This document shows, piece after piece, positions 204 to 26,793 of a DNA stretch of 29,472 nucleotides; the first letter of the stretch is position 1; every line of letters begins with the position of its first letter. Position numbers and translations under genes: made by a program. The notes under the pieces are model-generated. The model had not been told where the DNA came from, did no database searches, and saw only the letters and a list, made by a program, of their open reading frames with translations. The DNA is from a virus, in IMG/VR virus record IMGVR_UViG_3300049718_000090, positions 1 to 29,472 of that record; one strand, written 5' to 3'.

Positions 204-1334
204 TCAATTAATTGCTACATTCGGACAATTTGCTGTGCCCGTTGCAGTATCTGCTGATTCTGCAATCCTACGGATGTTTAGACTTGCGTTCAAGTCACTG
301 TGCCGTTGGATTCCACAAAAATTACATATAAAACGATGTTTTACGCGCTTTCCAAGTTGTTCGCAGACAGAGCAAGTTTGACTTGTATAAGCAGGATTAA
401 CAAAAACGATTACAAGCCCGGCTTCTTGAGCTTTATATTCAATAAAGGACTGTAATTGCTCCCATGCCCAACGATGTAACCTTGATCTAACTCGTTTACG
501 AGCTTTTATTCTGCTACGAATATTGGTTAATGCTTCCATGGCAATAGTATCACACCCTGTTTCTTGCGCTTCTTTAACAATCGCCTTACTAATTACATGA
601 TTTACATGTTTAACGTGTCGTTGTTCTCTCCCGGAGGTTTTCTTCAAGAGCTGTTTAGCGCTCTTGGAACCGTTGGATTGAAGACGAGCACGCAATGCTA
701 GTGCACAATCACGTTCATGACGTAACTGATCACCGCCAAAAATCTTTCCTGATGATGTAGTTGCAAGATTGTTCTCACCAAGATCTACACCTAAAACTTT
801 GTTATTATGAGGAAAAGATTGAGCAAAATGGTTTGTATTTCTCGGAATATCTATACAAATATTAAAAAACCATGTTCCATTTTTAAAGAGTAGTTTTGAT
901 TCTTTATGTTTTCCTGCTTTAAGGTAATTTCGTTGAAAATCACCAAGATTCATTTTAAAAAAATAACGACCGGATAATGTATATAGTGAAAGAGTCTCTT
1001 CTTTTAATGAATAGTTTTTTTTATGATAATGAATTGCAGATTTCTGTTTAAAAGTAATAGTTTTATTTTTATTCTTTAGTGCTTTACATGTACCGCATAC
1101 ATTACCAATTGCAGAACATACCATTGTCGCGCCAAGCTTTGAAAGACCATTTTCTTGGTCATTTCTAATTGGAAAATAAGCTAAATGATGTAATTTAACG
1201 CGATTAAAGCATTTATTTTCTAAGGCTATCAATGCAATCTTGTTGCAAACTTTATTGAACAGTATCTGCAATTGAAGCAATGCTGCGCTTTGTTCTGGAG
1301 TAGTATTTAGCTTAATGGATATAGTTCTAATCAT
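204..1334 (-). CDS. tnpB: TnpB-type RNA-guided nuclease (IS200/IS605 family), apparently intact
   Basis: The 376-residue protein shows all parts of the TnpB nuclease, ancestor of Cas12. RuvC-I is in VLGVDLGENNLATT (Asp184 from the chosen start), RuvC-II in CDTIAMEALTNIRSR (Glu267), and RuvC-III in RHSDLNASLNI (Asp347). Between II and III lies a four-cysteine zinc ribbon, CSVC...CNFC. The catalytic triad is complete and there is no frameshift. The start at 1334 gives the family-typical opening MIRTISIKLNTTPEQ. A GTG at 1397 would add 21 residues translated through a hairpin and is less likely. In family members the guide (omega) RNA overlaps the 3' end of the gene and runs beyond it, here below position 204. 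No tnpA transposase gene is in view, so the element may be a solitary TnpB or an IS605-like remnant. Confidence 0.93.
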   Translation of the reverse strand: MIRTISIKLNTTPEQSAALLQLQILFNKVCNKIALIALENKCFNRVKLHHLAYFPIRNDQENGLSKLGATMVCSAIGNVCGTCKALKNKNKTITFKQKSAIHYHKKNYSLKEETLSLYTLSGRYFFKMNLGDFQRNYLKAGKHKESKLLFKNGTWFFNICIDIPRNTNHFAQSFPHNNKVLGVDLGENNLATTSSGKIFGGDQLRHERDCALALRARLQSNGSKSAKQLLKKTSGREQRHVKHVNHVISKAIVKEAQETGCDTIAMEALTNIRSRIKARKRVRSRLHRWAWEQLQSFIEYKAQEAGLVIVFVNPAYTSQTCSVCEQLGKRVKHRFICNFCGIQRHSDLNASLNIRRIAESADTATGTANCPNVAIN

Positions 1335-1353
1335 AATATTATACAGACAATAA

Positions 1354-1379
1354 AGGGCCAGCTGTGTAGTGCTGACCCT
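1354..1379 (-). repeat. Hairpin just upstream of tnpB, possible transposon left-end structure
   Basis: Read on the minus strand, AGGGTCAGC pairs with GCTGGCCCT across an 8-base loop: nine continuous pairs including one U-G wobble. It sits 20 bases before the tnpB start. IS200/IS605 elements carry subterminal hairpins recognised by TnpA, and this is in the right place. It could also be a transcription signal, since TTTATT follows on the minus strand. No matching right-end hairpin was identified beyond the gene. Confidence 0.4.
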
Positions 1380-1605
1380 AGTATTTGTTTTATCCACCTC
1401 AAGGGAGAAGTAGGATATTTTAAAAATAACACTTGCTATCTTTTTTGTATATGAGAAGCTTTTCGAATTAATTGAAACAAGTAAAACCAGCCTAAAGACT
1501 TAAATATTCTTACCCTCTGCCAAGATCGTTTGAATACTAAGTCACTAACGAAAGCAAATATGATATCGCCTTTTTCATTTCAAGTAACTCAAGAGAGCAA
1601 ATAAT

Positions 1606-7550: not shown

Positions 7551-7613
7551 TTAGAGGTACTTGCCTTGCAACGCTTAATGCGGTTTGCAGTTTCTATGAA
7601 AGGAAATAACATG
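7551..7613 (+). promoter_or_regulatory. Hairpin leader copy 1, before the HNH gene
   Basis: The leader begins TTAGAGGTA and contains an imperfect stem (CCTTGCAACGC ttaat GCGGTTTGCAG, 7564-7590). It ends with GTTTCTATGAAAGGAA just before ATG 7611. The same arrangement recurs at 8093-8160 with a different stem sequence but conserved flanks. The element probably affects translation, because TTTC can pair with the GAAA beside the Shine-Dalgarno sequence. Confidence 0.5.
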
Positions 7614-8096
7614 TCGCGCCAACCTTCGCATAGTTTGTGCTTAAATTATTCAAGGCACCCTTTATATTCTATATATTGGAATATGAAAACCCGTTGTTAT
7701 AACGCCTCTGAGCACAATTTCCCATATTATCAAGGAAAGGGAATTAAATTATGTGACGAGTGGTTGGCTAGTGTTAGATCTTTTTATGATTGGGCTATAT
7801 CAAATGGATGGAAAAAAGGGTTGTCAATAGACCGAATCGACTCTAATAAAAATTACTGTCCTGAAAATTGTTGCTTTATAACAACTAGCGAAAATTCTAG
7901 AAAGAGAATATTAGAAAGGGGCTTCCCGCCAGGACCAGGAAGAAATAGAAAGTTTAATGATGATATAATTTGTGGAATAAGAAAATTATTATTAGATGGG
8001 ATTGAGGGTGCTACAATAGCTAGAAAATTTAATGTTAGCAATAAAACTGTTTATAAAATTAGGGACAAGAAAATTTATATAGATGTTCTTGGTTAG
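7611..8096 (+). CDS. HNH-type homing endonuclease with C-terminal helix-turn-helix
   Basis: The 161-residue protein shows the phage HNH-like pattern: YSIYWNMKTRCYN, YYQGKGIKLCDEW, then GLSIDRIDSNKNYCPENC followed by TSENSRKR. Residues about 113-155 (KFNDDIICGIRKLLL, then ATIARKFNVSNKTVYKI) form a resolvase-like helix-turn-helix for target recognition. Such free-standing nucleases copy themselves between phages by cutting an empty site and promoting repair. ATG 7611 is chosen over 7566 because AAAGGAAAT precedes it and the family motif begins shortly after. Its TAG stop lies inside the second copy of the leader repeat. The gene is more AT-rich than its neighbours, consistent with recent acquisition. 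Confidence 0.85.
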   Translation: MSRQPSHSLCLNYSRHPLYSIYWNMKTRCYNASEHNFPYYQGKGIKLCDEWLASVRSFYDWAISNGWKKGLSIDRIDSNKNYCPENCCFITTSENSRKRILERGFPPGPGRNRKFNDDIICGIRKLLLDGIEGATIARKFNVSNKTVYKIRDKKIYIDVLG

Positions 8097-11103: not shown

Positions 11104-11296
11104 AATAACCCTGCTTGTAATCCCCCTTTTAATGGTTCTATACTCTTTCTAGCGTACCTATAGCCTCGCTAGCTATCGCCGTAGCACATTCGTGCATGGG
11201 TCTCGACAACCCTCGTGGACGTACTACAGAGAATTCGTCCCGCTCTGAAATCAATATCATTTATCTTAGTCACTTTTGTGATTGGGAGACACGTTT
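11104..11296 (+). promoter_or_regulatory. Structured leader of the major capsid gene
   Basis: Several inverted repeats crowd the leader. CTAGCG (11149-11154) pairs with CGCTAG (11167-11172), GCAC/GTGC (11184-11195) closes on ATTC, and GGGT/ACCC spans 11198-11212. Two interleaved pairs follow: GGACG (11217-11221) with CGTCC (11236-11240), and CAGAG (11227-11231) with CTCTG (11243-11247). The last two cannot both be ordinary hairpins, so they are either a pseudoknot or alternative folds. A role in capsid mRNA stability or translation is inferred. Confidence 0.4.
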
Positions 11297-11571
11297 ATGA
11301 TTATTACTTCGGATACCCTGCCGCCACAAGTGCAGGCTAAGTTCGATGACAAGCTATTGTCTGTCAGAACACCTAGCCTTATACACACTGTTGCATGCCT
11401 GGGTAAGAAATTGGCTTCAAAGTCCGGTAAGACGATACGCTTTTCGCGTTATAACCGTCTGCCAACATTCCCAGCACCTTTGGGAACCTCAGGCGCTCCA
11501 ATTCCCGCAACTGCTGTAACACGTACCGACTTGGATGCGACGACCAGTTTTTACGGTTATACGGCCGTAGT
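11297..11571 (+). CDS. Major capsid protein (N4-gp56 type), exon 1
   Basis: ATG 11297 follows GGGAGAC. The 91 complete codons give the family's N-terminus: TLPPQVQAKFDDKLLSVRTP, SLIHTVACLGKKLASKSGKT, IRFSRYNRLPTFPAPLG and the strand TSFYGYTAVV. The frame continues past the proposed boundary for 17 unrelated codons and stops at 11621-11623, far short of a capsid protein. The family pattern 'YG......N.QV.L...DPVLN' is completed only by the downstream frame at 12295. The boundary after T11571 is chosen because it ends in T, keeps phase, and gives V-N-Q-Q-V at the join. Joined length is 315 residues. Confidence 0.85.
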
Positions 11572-12294
11572 AAAATCTTCTCTGATAATCTTGAACGCCT
11601 ACGACGCAATTGCGTTAGGGTAACAAGGAGGAAGTTCGCTATGATCGCCTTTTTTGTTCATACGTTTAGCTTCAAGGTACAACTGCTTTCTGTATTCACG
11701 AACATCTTCGGGTATACGCCAGCCAGTTTTACCAATTGTTGCTCTAAACTTGAAAACAAGATCGGCGTGTGGTTTTTTAACTATGAGATATGGATAACAG
11801 GCATCAAGTATATCGAAAATTCCTCTTCCAAGAAAAGTAGCTCTATATACTTGTTTATTTCCAGGATGCTTTTTATCTTTTCGAAATGCTGCACCAAAGT
11901 TTTTAACAACCCATTCAATAACTTCAAGGTTTGTATTGGCTATAATCATTCTCAGGGAATAATAATCCTTAAGTCTATTTTCGCCATTTGCGCTTTGAAG
12001 TTCGACGCTTATATGTCCTTCTCCGTCAAGTATTCCGGCAAAATAAGCAAGTGTTTCGTTAGTCCACATAGTTATCTCCATGATATGTATGGTTTACTGA
12101 ACTCAGCTTTCCATAAATATATCATAACTTACACCTCGAACGAAGTAAGCGAGAAGACCCATAGTAATATGGGATGCGGTACTCTGATCTCCAATCGAAA
12201 GATGGAGAGGCAGGCTGAGAAGATCTGCCCGCCAATATTTGCTGTATAAGCATATATTGGTCACAAAAAGTAACAGAATGCAATTTGTCGCATG
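11572..12294 (+). ncRNA. Putative group I-like intron in the major capsid gene
   Basis: A 723-base insert splits the capsid frame; it starts after a T and ends with a G, the group I rule. A possible P1 pairs exon bases CGTAG (11566-11570) with CTACG (11599-11603), with T11571 facing G11597/C11598. The 3' part (12128-12260) folds densely. CTTAC/GTAAG spans 12128-12149, and CCCATA/TATGGG (12158-12173) closes on GTAA. A bulged stem at 12188-12208 closes on GAAA, GGCAG/CTGCC spans 12209-12229, and CCAATAT/ATATTGG lies at 12232-12260. GTAA and GAAA are GNRA tetraloops only on this strand. The classical P7 (R/S) motifs were not found by eye; AAGATCTGCCC (12220-12230) resembles an S element but lacks a proper partner. 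Confidence 0.72.
11599..12069 (-). CDS. LAGLIDADG homing endonuclease, antisense within the capsid intron
   Basis: The 156-residue protein has one LAGLIDADG motif near its N-terminus (LAYFAGILDGEGHISV, with the catalytic acidic residue in DGEG). Downstream are typical family strands SLRMIIANTNLEVIEWVVKN, QVYRATFLGRGIFDIL and PYLIVKKPHADLVFKF. One motif in about 160 residues implies a homodimer, as in I-CreI. ATG 12069 has GGAG at the right distance; the ATG at 12081 does not. It lies on the strand opposite the capsid gene, and its stop codon (11599-11601) overlaps the presumed P1 pairing strand. It would be expected to cut intronless capsid alleles. No truncation is visible. Confidence 0.88.
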   Translation of the reverse strand: MWTNETLAYFAGILDGEGHISVELQSANGENRLKDYYSLRMIIANTNLEVIEWVVKNFGAAFRKDKKHPGNKQVYRATFLGRGIFDILDACYPYLIVKKPHADLVFKFRATIGKTGWRIPEDVREYRKQLYLEAKRMNKKGDHSELPPCYPNAIAS

Positions 12295-12967
12295 CAATCA
12301 ACAAGTCGAGTTAACCAACTCAGACCCTGTTTTGAACTCATTTGCTGACCTTTTGGGTCTGTCATTAAAGATGACCGAAGACCAATTGTGTCGCGATGCC
12401 ATGAATGCAACAAGCACAGTTGTTAATGCTACTGGTGGCAACAATGGAGATCTTCCAACAAATATAGCACTGTCAGACATTGATGATATCACATCTACCC
12501 TTCTAAACAATGATGCCTGGATGATTCTCGAGGGTCAAGAAGGTATGGATAAATTTGGAACAGGCCCATTGCGAGATGCGTACCTGGGACTTGGAAATGC
12601 CAAATTGTCAAAAGACCTTAACAACCTTAACGGATTCTTGCCAAAGTGGAATTATCCCCATGCTATTCAGGGCACAATGCCCAGCGAATGGGGCGCGGTA
12701 AACAACGTTCGCTTCTTGCTTTCATCGGTGGGCAGCGTAGATCCATTGGCTTCACGCCTTGGAAACGATGTATACAACCTGTTCATCATGGGTTTAGAAG
12801 CTATGGCTATTGTTGAAATGGATAACTATTCAAGCCGTTTCTTATATAGACCACCAGTTTATTCAGATGCATTGTTTCAAAATTATACGTTGGGTACAGT
12901 GTTTGCCCAGGTCCCTCGCATACTCAATGACCTGTGGTTGGCCAAAGTACGCGTAACATTACGTTAA
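12295..12967 (+). CDS. Major capsid protein (N4-gp56 type), exon 2
   Basis: From the proposed 3' splice site the frame encodes NQQVELTNSDPVLNSFADLL, then GLSLKMTEDQLCRDAMNATS, VVNATGGNNGDLPTN and EGQEGMDKFGTGPLRDAYLG. It continues NNVRFLLSSVG and ends FAQVPRILNDLWLAKVRVTLR. This is the body of an N4-gp56-type shell protein, and the pattern follows exon 1 without gap or overlap. The open frame extends upstream to about 12239 but has no ribosome site and starts inside intron stem structure, so it is not an independent gene. The next gene starts ten bases after the stop with AAGGAG. Confidence 0.85.
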
Positions 12968-26150: not shown

Positions 26151-26504
26151 ATGAGTAATGCAAGTAGCGTACGTATTAGGTACGAGATCTTACGTTCGTT
26201 AGATTGGACGTTAGTAACAGCAAATTATGTAGCTGTCGGAACACCATTACAGCACCCAGCAAGAATTTTAAAACTAAGTAACGCTACGGATGCTGATATG
26301 TTGATCTCTTTTAATGGGGTCGATGATCATGATTTTGTTGGGGGTAATTCATACTTTCTCTATGACTACGGCACTAACCGTTCTGGAACTGGTAATGAAT
26401 TAGAACAACAAATGGGCGATAGAGTCTATGTTAAGTCTGCTGACGGGACTCTTCCATCAACCGGTAGTATCTACCTTACACTTATCTATGCAAGTGATAA
26501 CTAA
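26151..26504 (+). CDS. Structural protein, paralogue of the previous gene (117 aa)
   Basis: ATG 26151 follows TGGAGATAACC; the in-frame codon at 26115 lacks a ribosome site. The product contains PARILKLSNATDADMLISFN, GVDDHDFVGGNSYFLYDYGT and VYVKSADGTLPSTGSIYLTL. Shared spacing with the 25773 protein shows common ancestry. It likely forms part of the distal tail with the neighbouring fibres. The next gene begins eleven bases after its stop, with AAGGAG. Confidence 0.62.
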   Translation: MSNASSVRIRYEILRSLDWTLVTANYVAVGTPLQHPARILKLSNATDADMLISFNGVDDHDFVGGNSYFLYDYGTNRSGTGNELEQQMGDRVYVKSADGTLPSTGSIYLTLIYASDN

Positions 26505-26514
26505 GGAGATATTG

Positions 26515-26793
26515 ATGCCAAACTATAAACAAACTATTCTTGTATTTCTTGGAACTCAACTTGACAATATAAGAGATATGATTTCAAAGAAACGACACCC
26601 AATAAGCGGAAGAAAAGGATCTGAAAGTCGCTGCGCTATTTTAAATGATGATAAAGTTAGAGAAATTAAAAAACTACTCAGTGTTACTCCCCTTAAGAGA
26701 GGTGCAATTACTAATATAGGTAAAATGTTTGGTGTGTCTGAGGCTACAATCTCAAACATATATAACAATAAAATTTGGGGAGCGGTACTTTGA
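26515..26793 (+). CDS. Helix-turn-helix protein related to HNH homing nuclease C-termini (92 aa)
   Basis: AAGGAGAT precedes ATG 26515. Residues about 31-92 (SGRKGSESRCAILNDDKVRE, IKKLLS, ITNIGKMFGVSEATISNIYN, NKIW) match the C-terminal linker and helix-turn-helix of phage HNH endonucleases and align with the end of the HNH protein at 7611 (IRKLLL, IARKFNVSNKTVYKI). The nuclease half is missing and the N-terminal 30 residues show no HNH motif. It could be a decayed homing nuclease or a co-opted DNA-binding protein. It lies between fibre genes, and its TGA overlaps the TTG start of the next gene. Confidence 0.6.
   Translation: MPNYKQTILVFLGTQLDNIRDMISKKRHPISGRKGSESRCAILNDDKVREIKKLLSVTPLKRGAITNIGKMFGVSEATISNIYNNKIWGAVL

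What the first reader, a model, noticed from the sequence alone, without database searches (positions are those of the whole stretch)
11297..12967. Major capsid gene split by a 723-base intron-like insert
Seen: two partial frames, 11297 on and 12295 on, each lacking what the other supplies. Joining T11571 to C12295 restores phase and the N4-gp56-type pattern YGYTAVV-NQQVELT...DPVLN, giving 315 residues. The exon ends in T and the insert ends in G, as group I splicing requires. Neither half makes a complete shell protein, so virion formation would depend on splicing.
Basis: partly seen in the sequence, partly recalled or inferred. Interest (0 to 1): 0.85.

Follow-up and report, generated by a model that had tools for sequence, protein, structure and literature searches.

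The report
Group I intron splitting phage capsid gene
The shell-protein gene of this uncultured phage is interrupted by a 723-base piece that should cut itself out of the messenger RNA and that carries, on its opposite strand, a gene for a DNA-cutting homing enzyme; it belongs to a covarying family of such pieces in phage capsid genes that the standard RNA-family library does not recognise.

Summary
The N4-gp56-type major capsid gene (TIGR04387) is split by a 723-nt insert, but the best-supported junction is T11557|C12281 (intron 11558-12280), not T11571|C12295. A covariance model built without this sequence ends its match exactly at G12280 (104.3 bits, E 1e-23).

The insert is a group I intron by anatomy: P1, P3-P9.2, the P3/P7 pseudoknot and a terminal G. 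In 22 sequences 98.9% of cells pair and 30 of 42 pairs show compensatory change. Rfam RF00028 misses it and seven of eight relatives tested, though the family model hits Kayvirus group I introns that RF00028 recognises.

Mycobacteriophage LittleE is a published, RNA-confirmed precedent. So the kind is known; what looks new is a divergent capsid-gene intron family with recurrent antisense endonucleases. Splicing and cleavage were not tested.

The parts
11297..11557 (+). Exon 1 of the N4-gp56-type major capsid gene (87 codons), ending ...TTT TAC GGT|
   Evidence: TIGR04387 match 11306-11557; junction scores
11558..12280 (+). Group I intron, 723 nt, terminal G at 12280
12281..12967 (+). Exon 2 of the major capsid gene (CAA TTT GTC GCA TGC AAT ...)
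   Evidence: TIGR04387; alignment to uninterrupted relatives
11551..11570 (+). P1: exon UUACGGU 11551-11557 with internal guide sequence GCCGUAG 11564-11570; U11557.G11564 at the splice site
   Evidence: equivalent P1 in L047, L156, L160, L164 with in-frame joins
11576..11582 (+). P3 5' strand UCUUCUC (partner GAGAAGA 12151-12157)
   Evidence: 6 of 7 pairs covary, 100% paired in 22 sequences
11590..11627 (+). P4 (11590-11593/11624-11627) and P5 (11598-11600/11618-11620) with A-rich J4/5
   Evidence: this domain in relative L144 is 86% identical over 42 nt to annotated Kayvirus Intron_gpI
11629..11631 (+). P6 5' strand AGG (partner CCU 12134-12136); the endonuclease gene fills the P6 loop
   Evidence: all 3 pairs covary in 22 sequences
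11599..12081 (-). LAGLIDADG homing endonuclease ORF (160 aa, LAYFAGILDGEG motif), antisense to the capsid gene; its 3' end overlaps P5-P6 on the other strand
   Evidence: phrog_5046 E 1.2e-18, which also contains the LittleE antisense endonuclease; I-CreI/I-MsoI relatives in the PDB, E 2.8e-6 for an I-CreI-type designed protein
12142..12147 (+). P7 5' strand G(A)AGUA with one bulged base; partner UACUC 12180-12184
   Evidence: outer G-C in 22/22; U-A to C-G compensatory change in 3 members
12151..12157 (+). P3 3' strand GAGAAGA
12158..12173 (+). P8 hairpin CCCAUA-GUAA-UAUGGG
   Evidence: all 4 counted pairs covary
12174..12184 (+). J8/7 (AUGCGG) and P7 3' strand (UACUC); conserved in the family, differs from the common group I sequence AAGAUAUAGUC
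12188..12260 (+). P9, P9.1 and P9.2 hairpins; P9 and P9.1 with GNRA loops
12138..12280 (+). 3' domain matched end to end by covariance model R1, built without this sequence
   Evidence: 104.3 bits, E 9.9e-24

Best explanation
The insert is a group I intron in the major capsid gene of a tailed phage. In the capsid mRNA the RNA strand would fold (P1, P3-P9.2); an exogenous guanosine bound at P7 would attack after U11557, held in P1 by the guide sequence at 11564-11570; the freed exon end would attack after G12280, joining T11557 to C12281 and giving a 315-residue capsid protein. On the other strand, in the P6 loop, lies a single-motif LAGLIDADG endonuclease gene. Its product, probably a homodimer, would cut intronless capsid alleles near this site so that repair copies the intron in. 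Shown: gene split, frame, conserved covarying structure, family membership, endonuclease homology. Inferred: self-splicing, guanosine use, homing, and how the antisense gene is expressed.
For: Split capsid gene and improved joined score. U.G-paired P1 and terminal G. 22-member alignment: 98.9% of cells paired vs 82.6% shuffled and 38-49% when slid; 30/42 pairs with compensatory change, including P3, P6, P7 and P8. An independent model hits the window at 104.3 bits, ending at G12280. The same model hits a Kayvirus intron at 32.4 bits (E 4.7e-7) that RF00028 recognises at 92.1 bits and, weakly, the LittleE intron (17.9 bits, E 0.0015), which is experimentally spliced (PMC3706429). In four relatives (L047, L156, L160, L164) the same P1/terminal-G rule joins coding frames in register. 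Closest relatives read uninterrupted through this site. Endonuclease.
Against: No RNA data. RF00028 does not match this intron even at E<=10 or with cut ends. P7 has an extra bulged base and J8/7 (AUGCGG) is not the common sequence. In member L016 the reading frame needs exon 1 to end in G rather than U. P10 is at most one pair here (by inspection). No sigma-70-like promoter for the endonuclease was found within the intron on the minus strand.
Confidence: 0.9

Rival explanations
1. Group I intron with the reader's junction T11571|C12295 (peptide YGYTAVVNQQ).
For: T/G rule and frame satisfied; still scores 119.8 bits to TIGR04387; distant relative L117 aligns slightly better to it (146 vs 137).
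Against: No P1 at 11571; lower profile score; lower score against all seven relatives; exon 1 profile match ends at 11557; the conserved family 3' end lies at 12280.
Confidence: 0.03
2. The ribozyme is degenerate and the capsid gene is broken (dead phage, or capsid supplied otherwise).
For: RF00028 does not match; P7 irregular.
Against: Every counted pair of the core is intact in this sequence; the same bulged P7 is conserved in all 22 aligned members; both exons are intact and the joined protein is 51% identical (80/157, no gap) to an uninterrupted relative; no second capsid gene was found.
Confidence: 0.04
3. A splicing element of another kind (group II intron, intein, or a new ribozyme class).
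For: No RF00028 match for this intron or for seven of eight relatives tested.
Against: Intein: a stop interrupts the frame near the start of the insert. Group II: no Rfam match to any intron family in the insert. New class: core pairings have group I order and pseudoknot, and the family model matches accepted group I introns.
Confidence: 0.03

Closest known systems
Mycobacteriophage LittleE capsid-gene intron (PMC3706429; JF937101, L014)
   Same: About 819-nt intron in the major capsid gene, U before and G at the end, LAGLIDADG endonuclease ORF on the bottom strand; its endonuclease is in the same PHROG as ours (phrog_5046); splicing confirmed there by RT-PCR and N-terminal sequencing.
   Different: Different phage lineage and host, capsid protein not compared here; LittleE matches RF00028 (30.7 bits) and its endonuclease lies downstream of the catalytic core, whereas here it fills P6; RNA cores only weakly related (17.9 bits).
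Kayvirus (Staphylococcus phage 812/PM32) group I introns
   Same: P4-P5 domain 86% identical over 42 nt to a family member; family model 32.4 bits; the 812 record lists a truncated capsid protein next to an intron-encoded nuclease.
   Different: Canonical P7 and J8/7 with extra sequence between P7 and P3; full RF00028 match (92.1 and 78.4 bits); a different, IENR1-type nuclease.
Intron-rich capsid genes of crAss-like phages (PMC7886860)
   Same: MCP genes of uncultured phages split by several group I introns with endonuclease ORFs.
   Different: Identified there through endonuclease domains; whether their RNA belongs to this family was not tested.
I-CreI / I-MsoI
   Same: Single-motif LAGLIDADG homing endonucleases encoded in group I introns; sequence similarity.
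   Different: Organellar rRNA-gene introns (own knowledge); low similarity, so the target site cannot be inferred.
Antisense endonuclease genes in nuclear rDNA group I introns (PMC9548176)
   Same: Endonuclease gene on the strand opposite to the ribozyme.
   Different: His-Cys endonucleases in eukaryotic rDNA.

Membership tests
Group I self-splicing intron | 5' exon ends in U paired with G of an internal guide sequence (P1) | tested here: met
   U11557.G11564, 7 bp
Group I self-splicing intron | Intron ends in G | tested here: met
   G12280, end of the conserved domain
Group I self-splicing intron | P3-P9 core with P4-P6 and P3-P8 domains and a P7 pseudoknot in the right order | tested here: met
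   Covariation in 22 sequences, all helices 96.7-100% paired
Group I self-splicing intron | G-binding G-C pair in P7 | tested here: inconclusive
   The outer P7 pair G12142-C12184 is G-C in 22/22, but an extra bulged base lies on its inner side, so its equivalence to the canonical G-binding pair is not certain; binding not tested
Group I self-splicing intron | Sequence-and-structure relation to accepted group I introns | tested here: met
   Family model hits a Kayvirus intron at 32.4 bits, E 4.7e-7; Kayvirus introns score 78-92 bits with RF00028
Group I self-splicing intron | Guanosine-initiated self-splicing | not testable with these tools
   Needs in vitro or in vivo RNA work
Rfam RF00028 as modelled (a proxy, not a definition) | Match above or near the gathering score | tested here: not met
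   No match at E<=10 for this intron
N4-gp56 major capsid protein (TIGR04387) | Score above the curated cut-off for the spliced protein | tested here: met
   127.1 bits vs cut-off 60
LAGLIDADG homing endonuclease | LAGLIDADG motif and homology to known members | tested here: met
   LAYFAGILDGEG; phrog_5046 E 1.2e-18; I-CreI/I-MsoI hits; Pfam PF00961 only 15 bits, below its cut-off
LAGLIDADG homing endonuclease | Cuts the intronless allele at the insertion site | not testable with these tools
   Needs an enzyme assay
Intein | Insert translated in frame with the host protein | tested here: not met
   Stop codon at 11621-11623 in the exon 1 frame
Group II intron | Conserved group II RNA domains | tested here: not met
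   No Rfam group II match

The most novel reading that the evidence does not exclude
The window holds one member of a lineage of group I introns, not recognised by Rfam, that has spread through N4-gp56 capsid genes of uncultured phages (about seven insertion points seen, up to five model hits in one 4.8-kb contig), with a bulged P7 and unusual J8/7, and with endonuclease genes found repeatedly on the antisense strand, so that homing and capsid expression may be separated by strand.
Probability: 0.6. Interest if true: 0.6.

Novelty: new variant of a known kind. Interest (0 to 1): 0.5.

Why it matters
Gene callers cut such capsid genes into fragments, and the standard RNA library misses the intron, so structural proteins of many uncultured phages may be misread. 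The family model makes these introns findable. The antisense endonuclease raises a testable question: whether homing is kept out of the late capsid transcript by strand. The irregular but conserved P7 and J8/7 offer a natural variant for group I catalysis.

Tried and rejected
Rfam gathering and permissive searches, whole and with cut ends: no group I match. BLASTN of the insert against phages: none. Close-protein searches in IMG/VR: only the identical record; a profile of distant capsids was too variable to scan. Post-hoc descriptor test of the core against shuffles: 378/97,121 loose, 30/620,654 tight; P1 alone 358/5,000; useful as a lead, superseded by covariation. The fold energy z-score is better on the plus strand (-3.58) than on the minus strand (-2.55) but not decisive. 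The genome-collection pattern scan gave one hit without a P8 hairpin of five or more pairs, judged to be chance. An early manual fold that placed P3 elsewhere was dropped once MFE folding and relatives were available. Intein and group II readings rejected.

Full report
Observation. Two plus-strand frames, 11282-11623 and 12239-12967, each carry part of an N4-gp56 major capsid protein. Neither is complete: TIGR04387 gives 34.7 and 78.5 bits for the halves and 119.8-127.1 for joined forms. The best-scoring cultured relative in the phage collection is the capsid of Pseudoalteromonas phage vB_Pun_Y3 (24.8% identity, E 3e-15). A second IMG/VR record, 39.8 kb, is 100% identical over the region. No other capsid match occurs in either record.

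Junction. A second frame-keeping join with the same T/G rule and the same insert length is T11557|C12281. It gives SFYGQFVACNQQVELT instead of SFYGYTAVVNQQVELT. The second is preferred for five reasons: TIGR04387 127.1 vs 119.8 bits; higher score against seven relatives that are uninterrupted here, such as L150 (SFYGTYVALNEQV) and L156 (SFYGLYVAINQQV); the exon 1 profile match stops at 11557; a 7-bp P1 with U.G at the splice site exists at 11557 and none at 11571; and the family model ends at G12280.

RNA structure. Rfam found no group I intron. MFE folding with the endonuclease region cut down suggested P1, P3 (UCUUCUC/GAGAAGA) and hairpins with GNRA loops, in group I order. A scan of IMG/VR for the P7 and J8/7-P7' sequences found L016/L020, and later scans L047, L117 and about 20 more. 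Their introns align with this one. On 22 sequences the structure, including the P3/P7 pseudoknot, is paired in 98.9% of cells (82.6% when shuffled; 38-49% when slid), with compensatory change at 30 of 42 pairs: P3 6/7, P6 3/3, P8 4/4, P7 1/5. The alignment was made by MAFFT, not fitted to the structure, but the structure was read partly from these sequences and long P6/P8 loops of six rows were trimmed by hand. A model of the 3' domain built from 15 relatives without this sequence finds one place in the window, 12138-12280, at 104.3 bits and E 9.9e-24.

Is it group I? The family model also finds a Kayvirus intron (32.4 bits, E 4.7e-7) and weakly the LittleE intron (17.9 bits, E 0.0015); RF00028 finds the two Kayvirus introns at 92.1 and 78.4 bits and LittleE at 30.7. 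The P4-P5 domain of member L144 is 86% identical over 42 nt to annotated Kayvirus Intron_gpI. The order of helices, U.G-paired 5' site and terminal G fit. In four members (L047, L156, L160, L164) the P1/terminal-G rule joins the frames in register. What differs is a bulged P7 (GnAGUA/UACUC; one member outside the alignment, L148, lacks the bulge by inspection) and J8/7 AUGCGG. RF00028 missed L016, L047, L144, L153, L148, L161 and L163 and hit one intron of L156 weakly (23.2 bits). I therefore file it as group I, as a divergent variant; the equivalence of its P7 G-C pair to the canonical guanosine site is left open.

The antisense gene. The minus-strand ORF 11599-12081 encodes a 160-residue single-motif LAGLIDADG protein. 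It lies in the P6 loop; its 3' end overlaps P5-P6. LittleE's antisense endonuclease is in the same PHROG. In the RNA family, antisense LAGLIDADG ORFs also occur in L148 (1796-2374) and twice in L156 (6095-7021, 7588-8499), while L016 and L162 carry sense ones. No sigma-70-like promoter was seen on the minus strand inside the intron, so how it is expressed is unknown.

Family context. Exon sequences place most relatives in the same capsid gene at different points: before VQQSFSYKLL, at IH|NIPAM, VD|IDATMSFYG, FYG|QFVA (this window), QV|LTITNEDPVLN, DP|VLNEAA and |DNPT (some 5' exons inferred by inspection). Several contigs have three to five model hits. The window itself has one.

Known versus new. 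Capsid-gene group I introns with antisense LAGLIDADG are known and spliced in LittleE (PMC3706429). Capsid genes with several introns are known in crAss-like phages (PMC7886860). New here, as far as the Rfam release and papers searched show, is a divergent intron family not recognised by RF00028 and centred on N4-gp56 capsid genes. Other intron databases were not available, so absence there is not claimed.

Limits. Everything is computed from sequence. Splicing, guanosine dependence, endonuclease activity and homing are inferred. Model E-values are rough because calibration was shortened.

Noticed in passing
L156 5357-8590: A close relative's capsid region has four model hits (three downstream of the capsid start) and two antisense 303-308-aa two-motif LAGLIDADG ORFs; exon pieces resume in register with the window's protein (LGLSLK|MTEDQ; WNYPRA|).
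   Followed up: partly
L016 2150-3450 (and L020): Member whose reading frame needs exon 1 to end in G (GAG|) if the intron ends at its conserved G; an apparent exception to the U rule.
   Followed up: partly
L007 2501-2968: In Gordonia phage Lennon a phrog_5046 endonuclease ORF lies antisense inside a fully open MuF-type capsid gene of about 1036 codons; the intron model has no hit there, so it is some other insertion.
   Followed up: partly
L149, L163, L117, L154 (P6 loops): Introns carry short sense ORFs that start in P6 and read through P7, sharing a PERSKRED-like peptide.
   Followed up: no
window 204-1397 (-): TnpB-like protein (Cas12f1-like_TNB, OrfB_IS605) near the left end.
   Followed up: no
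window 7566-8096 and 26428-26793 (+): Two ORFs outside the intron matching HNH-endonuclease PHROGs.
   Followed up: no
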